Source of the DNA: Planctomycetota bacterium
Lineage (GTDB): Bacteria; Planctomycetota; Brocadiia; Brocadiales; Brocadiaceae
NCBI GenBank assembly: GCA_016235875.1
Contig: JACRII010000139.1
Location: forward strand, 1-49,102
Reading direction: 5' to 3'
Length of the DNA stretch: 49,102 nt
The notes below the pieces were generated by a model, which saw only the letters and a program-made list of their open reading frames with translations, was not told the DNA's origin and searched no databases. Position numbers and translations under genes: made by a program. Shown here in pieces: positions 1 to 48,131 of the stretch (its first letter is position 1; each line of letters starts with the position of its first letter).

Positions 1-214
1 CTAAATCAGACTGCCATCAGCGACTTCTTAGCCACAGAGGTCGCAGAGATTACAGAAAAAAGGGGAATATTCCTAGGCGTATAGGAATTTCAACGTTGTA
101 GGGGCAATTCATGAATTGCCCCTACCTGTAAACAAAAAAATCACCGAAGGCCTAACTTAAGCATCCTCTGTGAATCATTTTCATTCGTGCTTATTTGTGC
201 AAATTCGTGGCTTA
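1..214. other. Intergenic stretch with repeat remnants at the window edge
   Basis: I see no convincing gene here. GCCACAGAGG at 31-40 and CCTCTGTG near 165-172 are the arms of a dispersed repeat whose relatives recur at 11718-11765 and 48891-48980. A perfect palindrome lies at 98-125. A plus-strand frame is open from base 1 to a stop at 79-81, but it runs through the repeat, so I do not call it. Confidence 0.5.
98..125. repeat. Perfect 28-bp palindrome, GTAGGGGC...GCCCCTAC family
   Basis: The 28 bases equal their own reverse complement. The outer 8 bases, GTAGGGGC and GCCCCTAC, recur at 19312-19339 and 46827-46854, and a close variant is at 6886-6911. The inner bases differ between copies but stay self-complementary, which points to a maintained structure or a mobile palindrome. 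Confidence 0.9.
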
Positions 215-6345: not shown

Positions 6346-6858
6346 TTATTCTCTGCGCTCTTGATACCGTTCCATAATGAGATGCCACTTGTCCTGGTAT
6401 TTGAGTATTTTTTCTGCAACTTCTCGTACCGCCCCGCATCCCCCTCTTGCCTTTGTAACATAGGCTGAGTGCTGTTTAGCAAGAGGAGTGGCGTTGGCAA
6501 CTGCTACAGGAAACCCGACACGATACAGTATGGGCAGATCTATAAGGTCATCACCGATATAACATATTTCTTCATCCCGGAGCGCGTACTTCTTTAGTAT
6601 CTCTTTGTAAGCATCTAATTTGTTTTTAGCCCCCTGGTATACATCCTCAATACCCAGTTCGCTTGCCCGATGGATTACCGCCTTGCATGTCCTGCCGCTG
6701 ATAATGGCAGTCTTGATGCCAACACGATGGAGGTATGCGATGCCTGTGCCGTCCAATACATGAAATGCCTTTATTTCACGCCCCTCGGAACCAATATAAA
6801 TGGCGCCATCCGTTAAAACACCATCAACATCTATGATAACCAGTTTTATATTTTTCAT
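6346..6858 (-). CDS. kdsC: 3-deoxy-D-manno-octulosonate 8-phosphate phosphatase
   Basis: This 170-residue HAD-family phosphatase hydrolyses Kdo-8-phosphate to Kdo for lipid A core synthesis. Motif I is DVDGVLTDG, with the nucleophile and acid Asp10 and Asp12. Motif II is the SGR stretch at about residue 54, and motif III is GDDLIDLPIL with the metal-binding aspartates. The length fits the tetrameric cap-less KdsC family of about 170-190 residues. It lies just downstream of kdsD, which makes the precursor of the pathway, separated by a palindrome at 6886-6911. The stop is 18 bases before the hicB start. Confidence 0.93.
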   Translation of the reverse strand: MKNIKLVIIDVDGVLTDGAIYIGSEGREIKAFHVLDGTGIAYLHRVGIKTAIISGRTCKAVIHRASELGIEDVYQGAKNKLDAYKEILKKYALRDEEICYIGDDLIDLPILYRVGFPVAVANATPLAKQHSAYVTKARGGCGAVREVAEKILKYQDKWHLIMERYQERRE

Positions 6859-6885: not shown

Positions 6886-6911
6886 TAGGGGTTTAAAATT
6901 TTAAACCCCTA
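6886..6911. repeat. Perfect 26-bp palindrome between kdsD and kdsC
   Basis: TAGGGGTTTAAA is followed by its exact mirror complement, giving a 26-base perfect palindrome. It is a variant of the GTAGGGGC family at 98, 19312 and 46827. The bases just after it (6920-6957) read like a dispersed CCGTGTTTATCTGCGTTTATCAG-type element. Confidence 0.85.
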
Positions 6912-6964: not shown

Positions 6965-7954
6965 TTAGAATCCAACCTCCAGCAAATCCTGCACGTCTAT
7001 AATGCCAATGGGCGTATTGGAATCGTCAACCACGGGGATTTGATCGATTTTATGGTCTTTCAATATCTTGTAAGCCTCGGCTACCAGACAACGGGAGTTG
7101 ATGACCTTTGGTGACCGCGTCATGACCTCTTTCACGCTGCCGTGCAAAAATGATATGCCGTTTTCCAAATGCCTTCTCAGGTCGCCGTCAGTAAAAAATC
7201 CCACCAGTTTATTCTGTTTATCAACGATACTCACAGCACCGGGCTTGCCCGCTGTTTCCGTCATAATAGTTATAACGTCCAGCAAGGGTGTATCTTCGCT
7301 GGCCACGGGGTTTGCTTCATTCTTGCGCATGACCATTTCCACCGTGAGTAATTTCCTGCCAAGTTCTCCGCCCGGATGGTAGAACGCATAGTCCTCTTTA
7401 CTGAGATTCCGCTTTTTGAATATCGTAAGGGCTAAAGCGTCGCCCAGAGCGAGCATGGCCGTTGAACTTGCCGATGGGGCAAGACCTAACGGACACGGTT
7501 CTTCAATCTTTCCGATGTCAAGCACAACGTCACTGTGCTGCGCCAGAGAAGACTTACTATTTCCTGTAATCGCAATTACCTTTGCCCCCATCTGTTTTAC
7601 AAAAGGCAGGAGTGTAACAACCTCTGTTTCGCCGCTGTTGGAAAGCGCCAGGACGACGTCCTCCGCAACGACCCTTCCCAGGTCGCCGTGTCTTGCTTCC
7701 GATGAGTGAATCCAATAGGAAGGCGTCCCCGTGCTGGCCAGTGTTGCAGAAATTTTCTGGCCAATTATTCCCGCCTTTCCAATGCCCGTAACTACCACCC
7801 GGCCTTTACAGTTAAAGATTAAATCGATGGCCTTCTGAAAATTATGATCCAGACGGTCGATCAGATTTTTAATTGCCTCCGATTCGAGTAATAGTACGTC
7901 TTTTGCAAAGGCAATATCGGCCAAAAATTTTTCTTGTGTCGGTTTTTTTTGCAT
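6965..7954 (-). CDS. kdsD: D-arabinose 5-phosphate isomerase (SIS plus two CBS domains)
   Basis: This enzyme converts ribulose 5-phosphate to arabinose 5-phosphate, the first step to Kdo. The SIS domain at about residues 35-170 carries GRVVVTGIGKAG, HSSEARHGDLG and LALSNSGET. A pair of CBS domains fills the C-terminal third, with FTDGDLRR and DQIPVVDD. I prefer the ATG at 7954, which gives 329 residues, matching the E. coli enzyme of 328. The frame also stays open upstream to a TTG at 8041, but that extension has no family counterpart. No strong ribosome site is seen for either start. The gene diverges from the site-2 protease gene. Confidence 0.9.
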   Translation of the reverse strand: MQKKPTQEKFLADIAFAKDVLLLESEAIKNLIDRLDHNFQKAIDLIFNCKGRVVVTGIGKAGIIGQKISATLASTGTPSYWIHSSEARHGDLGRVVAEDVVLALSNSGETEVVTLLPFVKQMGAKVIAITGNSKSSLAQHSDVVLDIGKIEEPCPLGLAPSASSTAMLALGDALALTIFKKRNLSKEDYAFYHPGGELGRKLLTVEMVMRKNEANPVASEDTPLLDVITIMTETAGKPGAVSIVDKQNKLVGFFTDGDLRRHLENGISFLHGSVKEVMTRSPKVINSRCLVAEAYKILKDHKIDQIPVVDDSNTPIGIIDVQDLLEVGF

Positions 7955-8092
7955 GCAATAAATTACGTATCTTTGAAATGGAATTGTTAAATTTTCATGC
8001 GTTGTTTGATTGATTATAGTGGGCATCTCTTTTATATTCAAGAGAAAAGAAGGGTATCATCAGCGGTAAAGATTTAATTAAGTGTTCTGGAC

Positions 8093-18540: not shown

Positions 18541-20397
18541 GTGCCGAATAACTCACATCTTTTAATTAAAACACCCCGTATTTTCCTGCCTGTTCTGGTA
18601 TCCCTGATTTCATTTCTTGCGTACCTGAACACCCTTCACCATCAATTTGTGTTCGACGATTTCAGGGTCATTACAAACAACCCATACATAAAGGATTGGA
18701 AGCATTTTCCGGCACTTTTTAACTGCGATTATTTTGAAATTTCTGGGGAACTCAGTTACCGTCCGCTTGTCACTGCGTCATATTTCACGGATTACGCTCT
18801 ATGGGGTCTCAACTCATTTGGATTTCACCTGACTAATCTGATACTTCACACGCTCAATACCTTTATCGTGTACCTTTTACTATTTAAAATAACCAGGAGG
18901 TTTAATCTTACCGTAATATCATGTTTATTTTTCAGCACACATCCCATACTTACAGAGACCGTGAATTCCGTGGGTTTTCGGGAAGACCTGCTGTGCGCTA
19001 CTTTTTTTCTGCTCGCCTTATTCTTTTATGTAAAACTCTACACTTCAAAATATAAAAAAATCTGCTATATCATTTCGCTCCTTACCTATTTCCTGTCTCT
19101 GTTTTCAAAAGAAATGGCCATTTCACTGCCACTCATTATTTTTGTTTTAGACTGGTTTTTTCTGCAATCAAGGGTCAGAATATCTCACCCCCACCCTAAC
19201 CCTCCCCCATCAAGGGGGAGGAGGGAGCCAGGCAACTTGCCAATTCATGTTCATCAAGATGATGTGAAACATTTTTGGGGCGGTCAAAAAAGTCTTAAGA
19301 ACGTACCCTATGTAGGGGCTGAAAATCTTCAGCCCCTACCTGTGAAAACAAGAATTTTAAGGTATTATCCGGGGTTCATATTGATGAGTATCGGTTATAT
19401 GCTCCTCAGACTGGTATTCTTTAAGAGTACCATCGAACACGTTGCTTATCCGGGGAACAGTCTGGTAACTAATTTCCTTACCATGACAAAAGTCATTGCC
19501 TCGTATATAAAGCTCTGGTTCTTCCCGACCGTTCTCAATCCGGATTATCACGTTACTTTTGAAACCACACCCATCAACTCCCCTTTTCTCATATCCCTCG
19601 CACTGCTGGTATGTATCGCATTTCTTGTGGTAAGGCTTTATCGCAGGCAAAAGGAAATAACCTTTTCGATTCTCTGGATATTTATCACATTGATACCGGT
19701 TATGAATATTATCCCGATCGGCAATATCATGGCAGAAAGGTATCTGTATCTCCCTTCGTTCGGTTTTTGCCTGTTTGCGGGGATACTGATGCTTAAAATT
19801 CATGCACGTGTTCCAAAGGCATATCACCCTTTTGTGAATGGTTGTTTTGCCGCCATATTCATCCTCTCCCTTGCTCATACCATAAGGCACAACAGGATTT
19901 GGTTTGACCGAACAACCTTATGGTCTTATGCAGTGGGTAACACGTCATGCAGTTTTAATGCTCATAATAATCTGGGAAAGCAATATTTTCTGAATGGAAA
20001 GATTGATGAAGCAATGAGAGAGTACAATATTGCTCTATTAAAGGCATCCGAAATTCAGTATAAATATCCAATAACACATCACAATCTTGGTCTTGTTTAT
20101 GATACCAAAGGGATGTATGATGATGCAATGCGAGAATACCAGAATGCCTTACGTATTGATCCTAAATACAGTGAAAGTCATAATAATTTGGGAATTATAT
20201 TGTTTAAAAATAAGCAGGTTGACCTGGCCATTGAAGAATTTAACAAGGCAATTTCATTTGACCCAAATAACCCAATATATCACCAAAATCTGGCGAAGTT
20301 ATATTACGAAATCAATATGCCTGGCGAGGCAAAGATAGAACAAGAACTGGCAAATCGGTTAAGAGATAGTAGTTCAGCCACGAATTTAAACCAATAA
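18541..20397 (+). CDS. Polytopic membrane protein with C-terminal TPR repeats (TMTC/DUF1736-like)
   Basis: This 618-residue protein has about ten hydrophobic segments in residues 10-455 and three or more tetratricopeptide repeats at about 465-605 (AHNNLGKQYFLNGKIDEAM, HNLGLVYDTKGMYDDAM, SHNNLGIILFKNKQVDLAI). The DDFRVITNNPYI and AMAE/RYLYLPSFGF motifs recall TMTC-type O-mannosyltransferases and the ArnT/PMT GT-C fold, so glycosyl transfer to proteins or polysaccharide is plausible but unproven. Residues about 215-268 are foreign: they are encoded by a REP-like palindrome and a GTAGGGGC palindrome read in frame. The start is the GTG at 18541, with no clear ribosome site. Confidence 0.75.
   Translation: MPNNSHLLIKTPRIFLPVLVSLISFLAYLNTLHHQFVFDDFRVITNNPYIKDWKHFPALFNCDYFEISGELSYRPLVTASYFTDYALWGLNSFGFHLTNLILHTLNTFIVYLLLFKITRRFNLTVISCLFFSTHPILTETVNSVGFREDLLCATFFLLALFFYVKLYTSKYKKICYIISLLTYFLSLFSKEMAISLPLIIFVLDWFFLQSRVRISHPHPNPPPSRGRREPGNLPIHVHQDDVKHFWGGQKSLKNVPYVGAENLQPLPVKTRILRYYPGFILMSIGYMLLRLVFFKSTIEHVAYPGNSLVTNFLTMTKVIASYIKLWFFPTVLNPDYHVTFETTPINSPFLISLALLVCIAFLVVRLYRRQKEITFSILWIFITLIPVMNIIPIGNIMAERYLYLPSFGFCLFAGILMLKIHARVPKAYHPFVNGCFAAIFILSLAHTIRHNRIWFDRTTLWSYAVGNTSCSFNAHNNLGKQYFLNGKIDEAMREYNIALLKASEIQYKYPITHHNLGLVYDTKGMYDDAMREYQNALRIDPKYSESHNNLGIILFKNKQVDLAIEEFNKAISFDPNNPIYHQNLAKLYYEINMPGEAKIEQELANRLRDSSSATNLNQ
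19186..19230. repeat. REP-like palindrome inside a coding gene
   Basis: CCTCCCCC at 19201-19208 and GGGGGAGG at 19214-19221 form an 8-bp stem with loop ATCAA, preceded by CACCCCCACCCTAAC. In frame it encodes HPHPNPPPSRG, a peptide typical of such repeats when translated. The gene stays open through it. Confidence 0.85.
19312..19339. repeat. GTAGGGGC palindrome inside a coding gene
   Basis: GTAGGGGCTGAA, four central bases, then TTCAGCCCCTAC. It is the same family as 98-125 and 46827-46854, but here it is read as part of the TPR membrane protein. Confidence 0.88.
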
Positions 20398-29606: not shown

Positions 29607-30047
29607 ATGAAACCTATCTGTCATTTGGCCGCATCAATTATTACGGGTGCAACTGTATTTCTAACAACAAAAACAATTACCCCCAGTATTGCATGTTTCC
29701 TGGTTGGGTGGCTGGTGGACGTCGATCATATATGGGATTTTTATAAAAATGTTGGTAAAGGTTTTAACATTAAAAGATTTGTCAATGCATTCGATAATGG
29801 GGAAATAAAAAAGGCTTATTTATACCTCCACAGTTATGAGCTTTTATTTGGACTGATATTTTTATGTTTTCTTACACATTTTAATTACCTTTTAGCTTTT
29901 ACGACCTTGGGGTTTGCGATACATTTGGTTTTTGACCAGATATTTAATCCTGTAAAACCTCTTACCTACTTTATTACCTACAGAATATTAAATAGCTATA
30001 ATAAAGACATTATTTTCAAAATAAACCCTAAAAAACTATCCTCTTAG
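29607..30047 (+). CDS. Predicted membrane protein with DxDH motif
   Basis: This 146-residue protein has about four hydrophobic segments. The second contains LVGWLVDVDHIWDF, and an early histidine (ICHLAAS) precedes it. The H....DxDH arrangement recalls YdjM/DUF457-type membrane-bound putative hydrolases, but the protein is short and the match is tentative. AAGGA lies about 7 bases before the ATG. It lies between bioF and bioB on the opposite strand. Confidence 0.5.
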   Translation: MKPICHLAASIITGATVFLTTKTITPSIACFLVGWLVDVDHIWDFYKNVGKGFNIKRFVNAFDNGEIKKAYLYLHSYELLFGLIFLCFLTHFNYLLAFTTLGFAIHLVFDQIFNPVKPLTYFITYRILNSYNKDIIFKINPKKLSS

Positions 30048-30077
30048 GTGCTTACAAAAAATATTTTGACACTTTTA

Positions 30078-30152
30078 GCAAAAATTTACGATTTACGATT
30101 TACGATTTACAATTTTATTAAATCCCAAATCGTAAATCTAAAATCGTAAATT
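30078..30152. repeat. TTACGATTTACGATTT hairpin repeat, copy 2
   Basis: Three to four TTACGATT units run directly, followed by AAATCGTAAATCTAAAATCGTAAA, giving an AT-rich hairpin. It is the same family as 16089-16164. It is too short and too regular inside to be a CRISPR array. Confidence 0.82.
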
Positions 30153-30183
30153 CCCGTTCAAGGACTCTTCCGACTCGTTCGTG

Positions 30184-31161
30184 TTATGATGTTTGTAGTT
30201 CCAAATGGAGGTCCTTTATCATTTCCAAATCATCTTCAATCTTTCTTCCCGTTGTGGTCAGATAATTTCCAATCATCGTGCTATTGGCGCCCGCATAAAA
30301 CATCCATGATTGCAAATCCCGAAGATTTTTTTCCCGGCCGCCTGCAATCTTAATTTCTTTATCAGGCAAAATAAATCTGAATACAGAAATAATTTTTAAT
30401 GCTTCCATAGGCGGCAAGGGAATACTGCTTTCCAATGGTGTACCGGAAACAGGATGTAAGAAATTAAGAGGAACGACATCGACATCCAAATTTTTCAAGG
30501 TGAATGCAAGGTCAATACGGTCCTCTACCGCTTCCCCAATGCCAAAAATTGCGCCACTGCATATTTCCAATCCAACTTCTTTTGCGACACAAATGGTATT
30601 TACCCTATCACGAAACGTATGTGTTGAACAAATATTGGGGAAAAACCTTTCAGATGTTTCCAGGTTATGATTAAGTCTTTTTAGCCCGCATTTTACCAAA
30701 GACAAGGCCATTTCTTTTGTCAATATTCCGAACGAGCCGTGCGGATGGATACATGAGCCAGTAACTACTGCTTTTATTGCCCTGCAAATTTTATCGAGAT
30801 CGGCTGATTTACTTATACTATATCCACTGGTAACAATACCAATGGAATTGGCTCCCGTTTGTTCAGCACATTTAGCAATATCAAGTATCCTGTTTGTATC
30901 AATGAGTGGAAACTCCTCAATGCCGGTGTGGTAACGTGAGGATTGAGAACAAAAACTACAGTCTTCCGTGCATCGTCCCTGTTTTGCGCTAACAATGGAA
31001 CATGCCTTTACATGATGACCAAAATATTTTAAGCGTATTTGATTCGCCCAATAAAACAAATCATAAACTTCGTCTCCATTAATTCGCATAAGAAAGAGGG
31101 CATCATCACGGCTGATTGACTGGTTTTGCAAGGATTGGTCTGCAATATTTTTTATTTTCAT
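30184..31161 (-). CDS. bioB: Biotin synthase
   Basis: This 325-residue radical SAM enzyme inserts sulfur into dethiobiotin. The cluster motif is C64, C68 and C71 in GRCTEDCSFCSQ, with HNLETS, SGAIFGIGE and AGGREKNLRD further on, the last holding the arginine that binds the [2Fe-2S] cluster. The length is normal. The uncharacterised gene at 31174-32190 ends 12 bases before its start on the same strand, so the two may share a transcript. bioF is nearby, but bioA and bioD are not in the window. Confidence 0.95.
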   Translation of the reverse strand: MKIKNIADQSLQNQSISRDDALFLMRINGDEVYDLFYWANQIRLKYFGHHVKACSIVSAKQGRCTEDCSFCSQSSRYHTGIEEFPLIDTNRILDIAKCAEQTGANSIGIVTSGYSISKSADLDKICRAIKAVVTGSCIHPHGSFGILTKEMALSLVKCGLKRLNHNLETSERFFPNICSTHTFRDRVNTICVAKEVGLEICSGAIFGIGEAVEDRIDLAFTLKNLDVDVVPLNFLHPVSGTPLESSIPLPPMEALKIISVFRFILPDKEIKIAGGREKNLRDLQSWMFYAGANSTMIGNYLTTTGRKIEDDLEMIKDLHLELQTS

Positions 31162-44007: not shown

Positions 44008-45798
44008 TTAAAAATGCATTTCTCTGACGAAAATATTCTCAAAAGCTGGGAACTGAGAAAGTTCCGTGACCTGAACAGTGCGGGCAATCCGAGAAGCATC
44101 ATGTAGCAATTTCTTGTTTAACAACGCTTGCACGGCGCCATCCAAACTTGAATTGCCGACAAAAGAAAACTTTACTTGTGTCAAAGCGGGGAGAATGCCA
44201 ATACCAAAGAGGCTTTCCTTGCTCAGATGGTATCCAAATGCACCTGCGATAATGACGGTTTTAAGATCATCTGGTTTAAGATTATGTGATGTAAGTAAGA
44301 TTTCAATGCCTGCCCTGATGGCTGCCTTTGCCAGTTGCACCTGTCTGATATCTTCCTGTGAAATCGAGACGTTTTCGGCTAAGCGAAAGTAACGTCTCCC
44401 ATCTTTCTCGAAGAGGTATGTCCCGTATTTTCCAGCAATATCACTCCCGATACTCTGTAAACGTCCCCTGGAATTGACAAGCCCAACCCGCACAAGTTCT
44501 GAAACAGCCTCCACAAGCCCGCTTCCACAGATACCGCGCGGTTTACCACCGCCGATAACATCAATGAATAATGGTAACCGTTCACCCCCACCCCTAACCC
44601 CTCCCACCAGGGGCGGGGAAGATTCATTGTTCCCTTGTATTCCTTCCCATGTCCCCCTCAGTGAGGGGGAGAAAGGGGGAGTGGTGAGGTTTAAGTGGGG
44701 GTGAACTGTTGCGAATAATTCTTCTTCAAGCCTTACGTGTTCAATCGCCCCCACACTTGCCCTCATGCCTGAACTTATCGTTACTCCCTCGAAACACGGG
44801 CCTGCTGCGGTAGAGGTTGCCACTATCTGATTGTCAAGAAAAAGAACCATTTCACCATTCGTGCCAATATCCAAAAAAAGGGCTGGCAATTCCAACGTCT
44901 CATAATGGATGGCAAGAAGCCCGGAAACGATATCTCCGCCCACATACGCAGAAAAACAGGGGAATGTTGTTACTGGCGCATATTCAGCAATTGCAATAGC
45001 AAGTTCCTTCGCTGTTGTCGTGAAGGTATCAAGGATTTCGGCTGTATAGGGATACTCGCCTATCCCCCTGATTTCCTTGTTTAAAAATATATGCTGCATG
45101 GTGGTATTACCAGCGGCCATAACCTGGTAAATATTTTCAGGTTTTATACCTCTCTCAGACGATAAAAAAGTAATTAAAAAATTAATGGCAGATATAAGCT
45201 CCCGGTGCATTCTGAAGAGACCGTCCTTATGGGAAATGGAGTACTTTATCCGCGACATAACATCATGACCATAATACACGAGCGGATTCAGCACGGAAGA
45301 ATTTTCGAGTATATTGCCATGTTGAAGATCAACCAGTGATGCTACCAGCGTTGTAGTCCCAATATCCAGGGCAATTCCGTACATGCAAGATTGTGTATCA
45401 CCCTCTTCAGTTGCAATGAGTTTATCATTTGCATATACCCGCGTGGAATAAAGGTCGTTGCCATAATGCACCAGCTCCTTTTTTACCGATGGATTCATGT
45501 TGTATTGTTGACTATCTTTTGTGAAGAAGCCGTCGATAATCTTCATGTCATCCTTCCTTTCCTGGGAAGGAAGGGTAACCTCCATATCATTTTCAACAAC
45601 AGTTTTACAGGCAAGTACCGTATCGAGGGTTTTATTGATCCGTACCTGCACGATATCCTTTCCGCATTTACCCGTACCACCGCATGGACTTTCCACAGAA
45701 ACACCAAGCTTCCTTGCCGCTTCAAGGATGGTAATCCCTTTTGGCACCTCACCTTCAATTCTTAATGGATAAAAAGTTATCTTTGCGCTCTCTGTCAT
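44008..45798 (-). CDS. RACo-like corrinoid protein activator (2Fe-2S plus ASKHA/DUF4445)
   Basis: This 596-residue protein has an N-terminal ferredoxin-like domain with C39, C45 and C64 and an ASKHA ATPase domain (ALDIGTTTLVASLVDL, AAGNTTMQHIF, FLDIGTNGEMVLF, GAFGYHLS). Such proteins reductively reactivate the Co(II) form of corrinoid proteins with ATP. At the usual fourth-ligand position the sequence is CGKD rather than CGKC, so D48 replaces a cysteine. About 45 residues around HPHLNLTTPPFSPSLRG are encoded by a palindromic repeat (44576-44710). I start at ATG 45798, where AAGGGA precedes and ATGA overlaps the upstream methyltransferase. Confidence 0.88.
   Translation of the reverse strand: MTESAKITFYPLRIEGEVPKGITILEAARKLGVSVESPCGGTGKCGKDIVQVRINKTLDTVLACKTVVENDMEVTLPSQERKDDMKIIDGFFTKDSQQYNMNPSVKKELVHYGNDLYSTRVYANDKLIATEEGDTQSCMYGIALDIGTTTLVASLVDLQHGNILENSSVLNPLVYYGHDVMSRIKYSISHKDGLFRMHRELISAINFLITFLSSERGIKPENIYQVMAAGNTTMQHIFLNKEIRGIGEYPYTAEILDTFTTTAKELAIAIAEYAPVTTFPCFSAYVGGDIVSGLLAIHYETLELPALFLDIGTNGEMVLFLDNQIVATSTAAGPCFEGVTISSGMRASVGAIEHVRLEEELFATVHPHLNLTTPPFSPSLRGTWEGIQGNNESSPPLVGGVRGGGERLPLFIDVIGGGKPRGICGSGLVEAVSELVRVGLVNSRGRLQSIGSDIAGKYGTYLFEKDGRRYFRLAENVSISQEDIRQVQLAKAAIRAGIEILLTSHNLKPDDLKTVIIAGAFGYHLSKESLFGIGILPALTQVKFSFVGNSSLDGAVQALLNKKLLHDASRIARTVQVTELSQFPAFENIFVREMHF
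44576..44710. repeat. 135-bp in-frame palindromic insertion in the RACo-like gene
   Basis: The ends form an inverted repeat of 16 bases with one mismatch: AACNGTTCACCCCCAC at 44576-44591 and the complement at 44695-44710. Inside are CCCTCCCACCAGGGGCGGGG and CCCCCTCAGTGAGGGGG palindromes. The length is exactly 45 codons and the frame stays open, so the gene gains about 45 residues. Confidence 0.85.
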
Positions 45799-46811
45799 GT
45801 ATTTCCCTTCACGACTGCTGTCATGGCCTTTATATGCCCGACGGGTGTTTTTGCGCTCAGGCCGCATGCAGGGGCAAGGATGTCTATACCGCAATTCAAC
45901 AGGTTTCTTGAGGCATTTTGTATCCTGTCAATTGGACCGTTTTGTAAAAGAATCGTACTTACGTTGCCCATGAGCTTTTTCCCAGAAATGACATTTTTTG
46001 CTTCTCGTATATTTACCATAGAATCCACACTTACACATTCAGACACGAGTTCCTTAAGTAGTTCATAGACAGGGCTCACACTGCCGCAGATATGGACTAT
46101 GACCGGTTTTCCAAGTTCATGCATCCTATTTGCAATCCTGTTCAAATAGGGAAGTACGAATTCTTTGAACAGGCCGGGTCCAAGAATCTCCCCGGTTGCG
46201 GAAGGGTCGGATATTACCATAACATCCACGCCATGCCCAATAAGTGCCTCACCGTACCTGATACTATTGTCAGTTAAAAATCTGAGCAAACCATGGACAT
46301 CTTCAGGCTCTTGTTTGAGCGCTTTAAAAAGCACCGTTGCTTCTACCAGTGAGGTAGCAAGGCTCAACGGACCGACCAGATTCCCTATTATAGGTGTATC
46401 GGAGAAGAGACGGCTTAATATCGCAGTACATTCAAGGATTGTGGGAAGACGGCCGTCTTTATGAGGGTTGAGTTCTTTTAAATCCTTCCACTGTTTCACG
46501 GATTTTAGCGGATACTGTACCATGTGAGGGCTCGTAATCTCATCACCATCTTCTACTTCCCCTCCAAAAGCCTCAGCTTCTGCCGTCATGCAGAAAGGGA
46601 TACCGAGATTTTCAAGTCCTGTTTCTATTCGCATAGCAATTGAAAGCTCTGCCATTTTTTGCGCATCACGGTGCACTGCCGGCCATCGGCATCCTGTTTG
46701 TATCATGACCTCTCTGCAAGCCATAGTCATCATGCCGCCCGGACAGATAACAGGAGCCCTGTCTACACTTTCACCACGAAGTACTTTAAGGAGTCGCTCT
46801 TTTTCTGTCAT
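45795..46811 (-). CDS. UroD-family (MtaA/CmuA-type) corrinoid methyltransferase, second copy
   Basis: This 338-residue protein reads TEKERLLKVLRGESVDRAPVI, GGMMTMACREVM, IIGNLVGPLSLAT and VIVHICGSVSPVYELL. These match methylcobamide:CoM-type methyltransferases of the uroporphyrinogen decarboxylase fold. The HICGS stretch and a later C residue supply the zinc-binding His-x-Cys. It lies between a similar gene upstream and the activator gene downstream (ATGA overlap), so it is part of one operon. The substrate cannot be read from sequence. No ribosome site precedes the ATG, and the upstream gap holds repeats. Confidence 0.85.
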   Translation of the reverse strand: MTEKERLLKVLRGESVDRAPVICPGGMMTMACREVMIQTGCRWPAVHRDAQKMAELSIAMRIETGLENLGIPFCMTAEAEAFGGEVEDGDEITSPHMVQYPLKSVKQWKDLKELNPHKDGRLPTILECTAILSRLFSDTPIIGNLVGPLSLATSLVEATVLFKALKQEPEDVHGLLRFLTDNSIRYGEALIGHGVDVMVISDPSATGEILGPGLFKEFVLPYLNRIANRMHELGKPVIVHICGSVSPVYELLKELVSECVSVDSMVNIREAKNVISGKKLMGNVSTILLQNGPIDRIQNASRNLLNCGIDILAPACGLSAKTPVGHIKAMTAVVKGNT

Positions 46812-46826
46812 AATAATTAGAATGAA

Positions 46827-46854
46827 GTAGGGGCACGGTGCACCGTGCCCCTAC
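46827..46854. repeat. Perfect 28-bp GTAGGGGC palindrome
   Basis: GTAGGGGCACGGTG is followed by its mirror complement CACCGTGCCCCTAC. It lies 15 bases before the start of the methyltransferase gene on the minus strand. It is of the same family as 98-125 and 19312-19339. Confidence 0.92.
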
Positions 46855-46880: not shown

Positions 46881-47076
46881 GTGGATTCGCTGCGCTTAAT
46901 CCACCCTTACTATCTGATTATTCCCCTCTTGGGAGGGGTTGGGGGTGGGTCCCTTTCCCCGTTTTCACGAGGACAAGGGTCGTGAAATTTCAGTGAATAT
47001 TTCGCGAATTACCGGCTTACCCACCCCTAAATCGTTCGACTGAGCTCACGACGAAGTCCCCTCCCAAGAGGGGACT
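46881..47076. repeat. Cluster of palindromic repeats between the two methyltransferases
   Basis: GGTGGATT pairs with AATCCACC (46881-46905). CCCCTCTTGGGAGGGG with GGGGGTGGGT follows at 46922-46950. At 47020-47076 come ACCCACCCC and then AGTCCCCTC/GAGGGGACT with loop CCAA, which mirrors the former block. The two blocks form a larger inverted pair. No T-tract marks a terminator, so the operon may continue across. Confidence 0.8.
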
Positions 47077-47078
47077 TT

Positions 47079-48131
47079 CTAATTTAAATTAATTGGAAGT
47101 CGTGCGTATCTCCTCCCTGCTTCAAGAAAGGCAACCATATTTTCATGCGGCGTATGAATGGGTACCTCGCACCCCGTGGCAACGATAAACCCTTTCGGAT
47201 TGTCAGATGCCTTTGCCACACACTCCTTCACCATATCGTTGATAATTTCCGGGTTCCCCTTGAGCATCCCATCTGCCGGGCTTACATTCCCCATTAAACA
47301 GACTTTCACTCCTACCAATTCTTTTGCCTCAAGGAGGTCGATATTGTCAATGCTCAGGATATCCGCACCACTCTCAGCCATGCATTGTATTACCCTTCTC
47401 GTTTTTCCGCAGATATGGAGTACGCCAGGGAGATTATACGAATGGATATGCGCATACACTTCCTTGAGATATGGCAAGACGAATTCCCTGAAATGTCTCT
47501 CGCTTATCATAGAACCCGTAGCCACAGGCTCAACGGTAACCGGAACACCCCCGGCTTTTACATAGGCGTCGATCAGGTTTTTCACCGATTGGGTAGCAAC
47601 CTTCATCAGGGTATGGACCAGTTCCGTGTCTGTATAGAGTTCTTTGATAAATATCTCCGTCCCTCTTAAAGCCGCAGATGTGGTAAATGGCGCACCAATG
47701 ACGGGTACTATAAAGACTTCATTGCCAATTGCATCTACGCAGCGCCTTACTGCCTCAAGGTACACGGGGAGTCTCCCGTCTTTTTCAGGGTTTACGGGTT
47801 TAAGCTTTTTGAGGTCTTCACGTGTTCGTATAAATGGAGTTTCTACCTGCGGCGCATCATCTTCGGGAAAGTACATCTTTGTGCCCATTGCCTCCGCAAG
47901 GGTCGAGGTGGTAGAGAAGAGGTAAACAATATCATGCCGATATTTTTTAAAACAGGCAATATTGGCATTTCCCATATTCTCACCGTTTGTGCAGAAATCC
48001 CTGACAGAGAAATTTAAACTCCGGGATGCAAAATTAAGGATTAACGGGCTCACCAGGAGCCGATCAACCTCTTTTCCTTGCAGGATTGCAAGCATTCGCT
48101 CTTTGGGTGTTATTTCATCTTTGGATTTCAC
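47079..48131 (-). CDS. UroD-family (MtaA/CmuA-type) corrinoid methyltransferase, first copy
   Basis: This 350-residue protein begins KSKDEITPKERMLAILQGKEVDR. It has VPVIGAPFTTSAALRG, VTVEPVATGSMI, VLHICGKTRRVIQ with the likely zinc ligands, and GNVSPADGML. The start is the GTG at 48131, overlapping the corrinoid gene stop as GTGA, with GGAGG about 7 bases upstream. The frame runs further upstream, but that part lies inside the corrinoid gene in another frame. Together with the corrinoid protein it should move a methyl group from an unknown substrate to, or from, the cobalt. Confidence 0.87.
   Translation of the reverse strand: MKSKDEITPKERMLAILQGKEVDRLLVSPLILNFASRSLNFSVRDFCTNGENMGNANIACFKKYRHDIVYLFSTTSTLAEAMGTKMYFPEDDAPQVETPFIRTREDLKKLKPVNPEKDGRLPVYLEAVRRCVDAIGNEVFIVPVIGAPFTTSAALRGTEIFIKELYTDTELVHTLMKVATQSVKNLIDAYVKAGGVPVTVEPVATGSMISERHFREFVLPYLKEVYAHIHSYNLPGVLHICGKTRRVIQCMAESGADILSIDNIDLLEAKELVGVKVCLMGNVSPADGMLKGNPEIINDMVKECVAKASDNPKGFIVATGCEVPIHTPHENMVAFLEAGRRYARLPINLN

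What the first reader, a model, noticed from the sequence alone, without database searches (positions are those of the whole stretch)
98..125. Family of GTAGGGGC palindromes with variable centres
Copies at 98-125, 6886-6911 (variant), 19312-19339 and 46827-46854 share the outer bases, while each centre is different and yet self-complementary. Selection on the fold or copying as a hairpin must keep the pairing. Similar palindromes occur in other bacteria, but I cannot say how this family spreads.
Basis: partly seen in the sequence, partly recalled or inferred. Interest (0 to 1): 0.5.

Follow-up and report, generated by a model that had tools for sequence, protein, structure and literature searches.

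The report
Transposase-linked "double-foot" REP palindromes
These short DNA palindromes are mobile repeats tied to single-strand transposase genes that carry a matching palindrome inside their own coding sequence, which links each different palindrome centre to a different transposase lineage.

Summary
The palindromes are real and far above chance: 3 exact copies in the window (0 in 100 shuffles), 21 exact and 41 relaxed copies in the 2.67-Mb genome, of the family of Ca. Brocadiaceae. They fit a published kind: "double-foot" REPs (GTAG at one end, CTAC at the other) of REP-associated tyrosine transposases (RAYT/TnpAREP subclass 2.4; Quentin 2018). The variable centres are mostly RAYT-lineage tags. 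RAYT genes in the order carry an in-frame palindrome in the loop after the HUH strand (arms >=9 bp in 53 of 72; 0.8 expected under synonymous recoding). The centre of copy 98 lies inside RAYT genes of same-genus relatives, that of 19312 inside one such gene, that of 46827 inside a RAYT fragment of this genome; no match was found for 6886. On a loop-excised RAYT tree the types cluster (17 changes; 37.7 shuffled). One 28-mer occurs unchanged in 18 named phyla. At one orthologous intergenic site an entirely different palindrome sits exactly between GTAG and CTAC with the same flanks in a sister genome: in-situ replacement. RAYT activity on these repeats is inferred, not shown. Kind known; the measured lineage linkage and the swap are the additions.

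The parts
98..125 (.). Double-foot REP, type A: GTAGGGGC-AATTCATGAATT-GCCCCTAC; intergenic, downstream of the minus-strand HemD/tetrapyrrole methylase ORF 215-1735
   Evidence: same palindrome in frame inside RAYT genes L220 (G001) and L278 (G005), same genus
6886..6911 (.). REP variant, T-type arms and AT-rich centre; GTAG foot on the minus strand only; between minus-strand ORFs 6346-6858 (HAD) and 6965-8041 (SIS/CBS)
   Evidence: no RAYT with this centre found
19312..19339 (+). Double-foot REP, type C: GTAGGGGC-TGAAAATCTTCA-GCCCCTAC, read in frame (VGAENLQPLP) inside ORF 18541-20397
   Evidence: RAYT L268 (G001) has type C palindrome sequence in frame in its loop and again at its C-terminal end; shared with G002, absent in G003 and G004
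19277..19343 (+). Left half of a ~105-bp MITE (GGGGCTGTCCAAAAAGT-type terminal repeat) with the type C REP; full copies in relatives have the REP at the centre
18541..20397 (+). 618-aa TPR membrane-type protein ORF that holds the REP/MITE insert in a linker
   Evidence: insert absent from the G003 orthologue
46827..46854 (.). Double-foot REP, type D: GTAGGGGC-ACGGTGCACCGT-GCCCCTAC; 16 bp upstream of the start of the minus-strand URO-D ORF 45795-46811
   Evidence: same centre with GTAGGGAC arms inside the own-genome RAYT fragment C154 (L293); copy absent in G001, G003, G004

Best explanation
The palindromes are double-foot REPs: short non-autonomous elements of several lineages of REP-associated tyrosine transposases (RAYT/TnpAREP subclass 2.4, HUH single-strand nucleases). 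Each RAYT lineage has its own palindrome, a GTAG foot plus a stem whose centre is lineage-specific, and carries a copy in frame inside its own gene, in the flexible loop after the HUH strand (shown). The RAYT would bind the folded single strand, cut by the GTAG foot and paste the hairpin elsewhere (inferred from published RAYT biochemistry). A genome visited by several RAYT lineages then holds several families that share GTAGGGGC and differ at the centre. Pairing is kept because only folded strands are substrates and because whole hairpins can be exchanged at a site (one clear case shown; agent inferred).
For: RAYT genes with in-frame palindromes: 53 of 72 loops have arms >=9 bp; synonymous recoding of the same peptides gives a mean of 0.76 of 72 (maximum 5) and equal-length segments upstream of the HUH motif 0 of 72. 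Best family is NF047646 REP-associated tyrosine transposase (scores 57-74 bits, under its 80-bit cut-off); best fold 4er8, RAYT bound to a REP hairpin. Type A RAYTs are on average 62% identical outside the loop and share 55% of codons at conserved residues, yet all 15 pairs have identical palindrome cores. Types cluster on a loop-excised RAYT tree: 17 changes against 37.7 shuffled, 0 of 200 as low. Genomes with a type A, E or D' RAYT have more dispersed copies of that type. 18 of 61 palindrome-bearing RAYT genes have a further same-centre copy in the fetched flanks. Dispersed copies avoid genes: 3 of 41 inside ORFs >=120 aa, random positions 71%. In-situ swap at C190:32467. Exact 28-mer in 18 named phyla.
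Against: No activity of these RAYTs has been measured. The window holds no RAYT, and its genome shows only a few, some broken or cut by contig ends. G037 has 18 type A and 9 type E copies and G024 3 D' copies with no matching RAYT detected; G006 has a type E-like RAYT and no exact E copy. No RAYT was found for the 6886 centre. The association tests are not corrected for kinship. RAYTs were gathered with a query that itself bears a palindrome. 11 of 72 loops have arms under 8 bp. Some copies travel inside MITEs with other ends, which other transposases could move.
Confidence: 0.85

Rival explanations
1. The palindromes are spread mainly as passengers of MITEs moved by DDE transposases; the RAYT link is secondary.
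For: Type C copies lie at the centre of ~105-bp elements with GGGGCTGTCCAAAAAGT ends, multi-copy in the genus; the 19312 copy is half of one.
Against: Only 1 of 40 own copies with full flanks exceeds 99%, and 4 of 40 exceed 95%, of mismatched pairs in flank self-complementarity; the same palindromes occur with several unrelated flanks and in RAYT genes.
Confidence: 0.15
2. In-gene palindromes are neutral insertions of REPs into a tolerant surface loop, with no role (the published reading).
For: Quentin 2018 (section read) models the region as peripheral; in the model of L095 the segment is a low-confidence coil between the HUH strand and the next helix.
Against: The palindrome stays letter-perfect where codons around it drift and follows the RAYT tree. 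Repeated re-insertion or conversion could also give this.
Confidence: 0.3
3. The repeats are kept as RNA hairpins (terminators or mRNA stabilisers) and spread is incidental.
For: Intergenic bias; three of the four window copies lie beside gene ends or starts.
Against: Does not explain GTAG/CTAC feet, RAYT linkage, in-gene copies or unchanged 28-mers in many phyla.
Confidence: 0.1

Closest known systems
Double-foot REPs of TnpAREP/RAYT subclass 2.4 (Quentin et al. 2018, PMC6006769; Bertels RAYT group 4, as stated there)
   Same: GTAG 5' and CTAC 3'; RAYT with NHxH, WQ, HuH-Y distance about 88-89; variable loop between HuH and Y with in-frame REPs; REPs beside the gene
   Different: Here: centres tied to RAYT clades, DNA-level constancy measured, in-situ swap, one exact 28-mer in 18 named phyla. 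The paper treats the insertions as probably of little effect.
GTAG-tagged REPs (Di Nocera et al. 2013, PMC3733652)
   Same: Short palindromic dispersed repeats with GTAG, several families per genome, RAYT-linked, some within ORFs
   Different: Defined by an unpaired GTAG at one end; here GTAG pairs with CTAC
E. coli / S. maltophilia / Marinomonas REPtrons (Corneloup et al. 2021, PMC8266576)
   Same: HUH enzyme acting on folded single-strand REP; GTAG and loop bases matter
   Different: Those REPs are read on one strand; a double-foot palindrome presents GTAG on both strands
Rickettsia palindromic elements (cited in PMC3733652)
   Same: Palindromes in frame inside ORFs
   Different: CGTC-tagged and, per that paper, without a dedicated transposase

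Membership tests
TnpAREP subclass 2.4 double-foot REP system | REP with 5' GT[AG]G and 3' C[TC]AC | tested here: met
   30 of 32 own 28-nt copies have both feet; 41 of 61 in-gene hairpins double foot, 20 one foot
TnpAREP subclass 2.4 double-foot REP system | REPs inserted in frame in the tnpAREP gene between HuH and Y | tested here: met
   53 of 72 genes with arms >=9 bp in that loop
TnpAREP subclass 2.4 double-foot REP system | Motifs NH[IFV]H, WQ, YIxNNP; HuH-Y distance median 88 | tested here: inconclusive
   NH[IFV]H 49 of 72 (rest NHLH, NHMH, NHAH), YIxNNP 29 of 72 (Y[IV]xxNP 64 of 72), distance median 89. WQ 72 of 72 is partly built in: the extraction required W followed by Q, L or R
TnpAREP subclass 2.4 double-foot REP system | REPs flank the gene (within 1 kb) | tested here: inconclusive
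   18 of 61 genes have a further exact 18-nt centre match in the fetched flanks (two of these lie just beyond 1 kb); the paper reports REPs near the large majority, but this count is stricter
TnpAREP subclass 2.4 double-foot REP system | Enzyme cuts its cognate single-strand REP | not testable with these tools
   Needs protein and oligonucleotides
GTAG REP super-family sensu Di Nocera | Unpaired GTAG at one end | tested here: not met
   GTAG pairs with CTAC in the window's exact copies
REPIN (REP doublets) | Two inverted REPs close together | tested here: not met
   11 spacings between own copies sharing a contig: 251 bp to 27.5 kb
MITE | Longer terminal inverted repeats around the element | tested here: not met
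   1 of 40 own copies above 99% and 4 of 40 above 95% of mismatched flank pairs; true of the ~105-bp type C carriers only

The most novel reading that the evidence does not exclude
The palindrome inside the RAYT gene is the master copy: the gene carries its own substrate as a coding loop, so enzyme and substrate are inherited together, and hairpins elsewhere are exchanged as cassettes between GTAG and CTAC feet, so repeats at fixed sites change identity without moving.
Probability: 0.3. Interest if true: 0.75.

Novelty: new member of a known kind. Interest (0 to 1): 0.47.

Why it matters
It ties a very widespread palindrome (one exact 28-mer seen in 18 named phyla) to specific transposase lineages and offers natural pairs (same site, different hairpin; same enzyme clade, different hairpin) with which REP recognition and spread, an open question, can be tested.

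Tried and rejected
One drifting family: rejected, the centres form discrete types tied to RAYT clades. MITE-centre rule for all copies: rejected (1 of 40 above 99%, 4 of 40 above 95% of mismatched flank pairs). Chimeric junction at the palindromes of L019/L021/L023: explained by repeats of about 60 bp and more, not followed. A plasmid search with a RAYT found 7 records, all under 60% identity, not followed. phmmer against solved structures found nothing; the fold search did. Paper searches. None of the listings showed a description of in-situ REP replacement or of RAYT-clade-specific in-gene REPs beyond PMC6006769; only open papers are held, and Elhai 2008 (cyanobacterial small repeats) is not held. 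Bertels 2017 was not read.

Papers: PMC6006769 outline, passages and section 12; PMC3733652 abstract, sections 5 and 16 and passages; PMC8266576 outline, sections 17 and 29 and part 1 of section 23; PMC2817692 passages; PMC5447742 outline only (not relevant). Others: search listing only.

Rows dropped: of loci L210-L299 (90), 7 showed no HUH motif by the pattern; 75 genes were extracted by a motif filter from loci L210-L299, L005-L015, L162-L191 and L047-L161, identical ones counted once; 2 were skipped and 1 merged, leaving 72. The filter also left out L268, L293, L259 and L129, named here. The tree used 60 of the 61 genes with arms >=8 bp; its groups were made by a crude centre clustering that lumps GTAGGGG and GTAGAGAC forms. 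In the cognate counts G043 and G060 were counted as without a type A RAYT, although with (a RAYT piece at G043:C117:61-261 beside an A copy; L221, G060, three A copies) suggest one.

Full report
Observation. Shuffles of the window give none. The own genome has 21 exact copies with no match to the reversed pattern, and 41 with a relaxed pattern. Among the 32 28-nt copies, pairing holds in 422 of 448 cells, with several compensated pair types at inner positions. The relaxed pattern's reversed control gave 20 matches, so it was used only to collect sequences, which were then read one by one.

Distribution. 51 of 59 relatives have the exact pattern, up to 200 copies in a 2.0-Mb genome. By record taxonomy these fall in 18 named phyla plus unassigned records, Cyanobacteriota most often (49 of 115). 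Many are metagenome bins, so single phyla could be mis-binned. G030, of the window's family, matches Ca. Brocadia sp. WS118 at 100% over 3528 bases, which places the window in Ca. Brocadiaceae by inference.

Transposases. Y1-type HUH transposase genes occur in the genome. Several of them, and many in the order, hold the palindrome inside the reading frame, right after the HUH strand MPNHxHGI. A search with one such protein hit 46 of 62 genomes of the order; neighbourhoods were fetched for 90 places. Of 72 genes that passed the motif filter, 53 have a loop hairpin with arms of 9 bp or more. Random synonymous recoding of the same loops gives 0.76 of 72 on average, and same-sized segments upstream of the motif 0 of 72. 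The peptide therefore does not force the palindrome. Other Y1 transposases with a HUH motif examined mostly have hairpins of only 4-6 bp after the motif (L179 has 8).

Centres as lineage tags. Type A (copy 98) is in RAYT genes of same-genus G001 and G005, of Brocadia, and of members of Balneolota, Chloroflexota and Pseudomonadota. Type C (copy 19312) is in frame in the loop of a RAYT gene of G001, whose C-terminal end reads VGAENLQPL again. Type D (copy 46827) has the centre of a RAYT fragment of the own genome, with GGGAC in place of GGGGC and the partner changed to match. Type B lies in an own-genome RAYT fragment, which is itself one of the dispersed copies (C37). No RAYT was found for the 6886 centre. 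With the loop cut out, the RAYT tree needs 17 changes of type against 37.7 for shuffled labels. Exceptions are informative: GAATAATTATTC and TTCAAAATCTTGAA types alternate among close relatives; there the rest of the loop changes too, so recombination between RAYT alleles is possible.

Constancy. Six type A RAYTs, on average 62% identical outside the loop (minimum 48%), use the same codon at 55% of shared residues but have identical palindrome cores in all 15 pairs. Either selection acts on the DNA fold, or the slot is refilled or converted from other copies; these data cannot separate the two.

Genome association. Exact copies outside the RAYT gene: type A 2, 20, 2, 2, 2 in five genomes with that RAYT, against 18 of 57 others with any; type E 6, 16, 4 in three, against 13 of 59; D' 1, 1, 1, 1 in four, against 1 of 58 (counted; rank tests 6e-4, 1e-4, 6e-12, without correction for kinship). 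Against: G037 and G024 have copies without a detected matching RAYT, and G006 the reverse.

Movement. Copy 19312 is shared with G002 and absent from G003 and G004. It lies in frame in a 618-aa TPR membrane-type ORF and encodes VGAENLQPLP, the peptide also seen at the end of the type C RAYT. The block with copy 46827 is absent from G001, and the palindrome from G003 and G004. At C190:32467 the own genome and G005 have a type A palindrome, while G002 has GTAGAGACAGGTTTTAAACCTGTCTCTAC at the same position, left flank 20 of 20 and right flank 17 of 20 identical; four other relatives lack the element. This is best read as replacement of a whole hairpin in place. It is one site; of 40 flank-matched pairs, 6 differ beyond the cut-off, 2 of them from this site and 4 between RAYT-gene palindromes whose differences are largely compensated.

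Mechanism. Shown: palindrome families, their RAYT linkage, in-frame copies, one swap, one gene insertion. Inferred: that the RAYT cuts and pastes the hairpin. Published RAYTs cut single-strand REPs using the GTAG foot and the stem-loop, and the studied REPs are active on one strand only (PMC8266576). A double-foot palindrome offers GTAG on both strands. The modelled type A RAYT resembles 4er8, a RAYT bound to a REP hairpin; its palindrome-coded segment is a low-confidence coil between the HUH strand and the next helix.

Known or new. Quentin 2018 describes subclass 2.4 with double-foot REPs inserted in frame in the gene, so the kind is known. Added here: lineage-specific centres, measured constancy, the in-place swap, the breadth of one palindrome, and the assignment of the window's copies.

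Noticed in passing
window 30045-30195: Another inverted-repeat element (ATTTACGATTTACG type) that is highly repeated in all six same-genus genomes.
   Followed up: no
window 46917-47092: A ~175-bp multi-copy element next to the 46827 palindrome, repeated in the genus.
   Followed up: no
L014 1237-1262 and 1849-1894: Another Y1 transposase gene flanked by TTCCCAAGCTCCTGCTTGGGAA palindromes: a second palindrome-transposase pair in the genome.
   Followed up: no
L173 1180-2179: A RAYT gene surrounded by, and containing, single-foot repeats GTAGGGGCGGACCTATGTGTCCGCCC.
   Followed up: partly
L102 7478-7505: Type A palindrome in a Gracilimonas RAYT extends to 25-bp arms.
   Followed up: no
window 18541-20397: The linker of the TPR protein looks made largely of repeat-derived sequence, including a SHPHPNPPPSRGR stretch that may come from another repeat.
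   Followed up: partly
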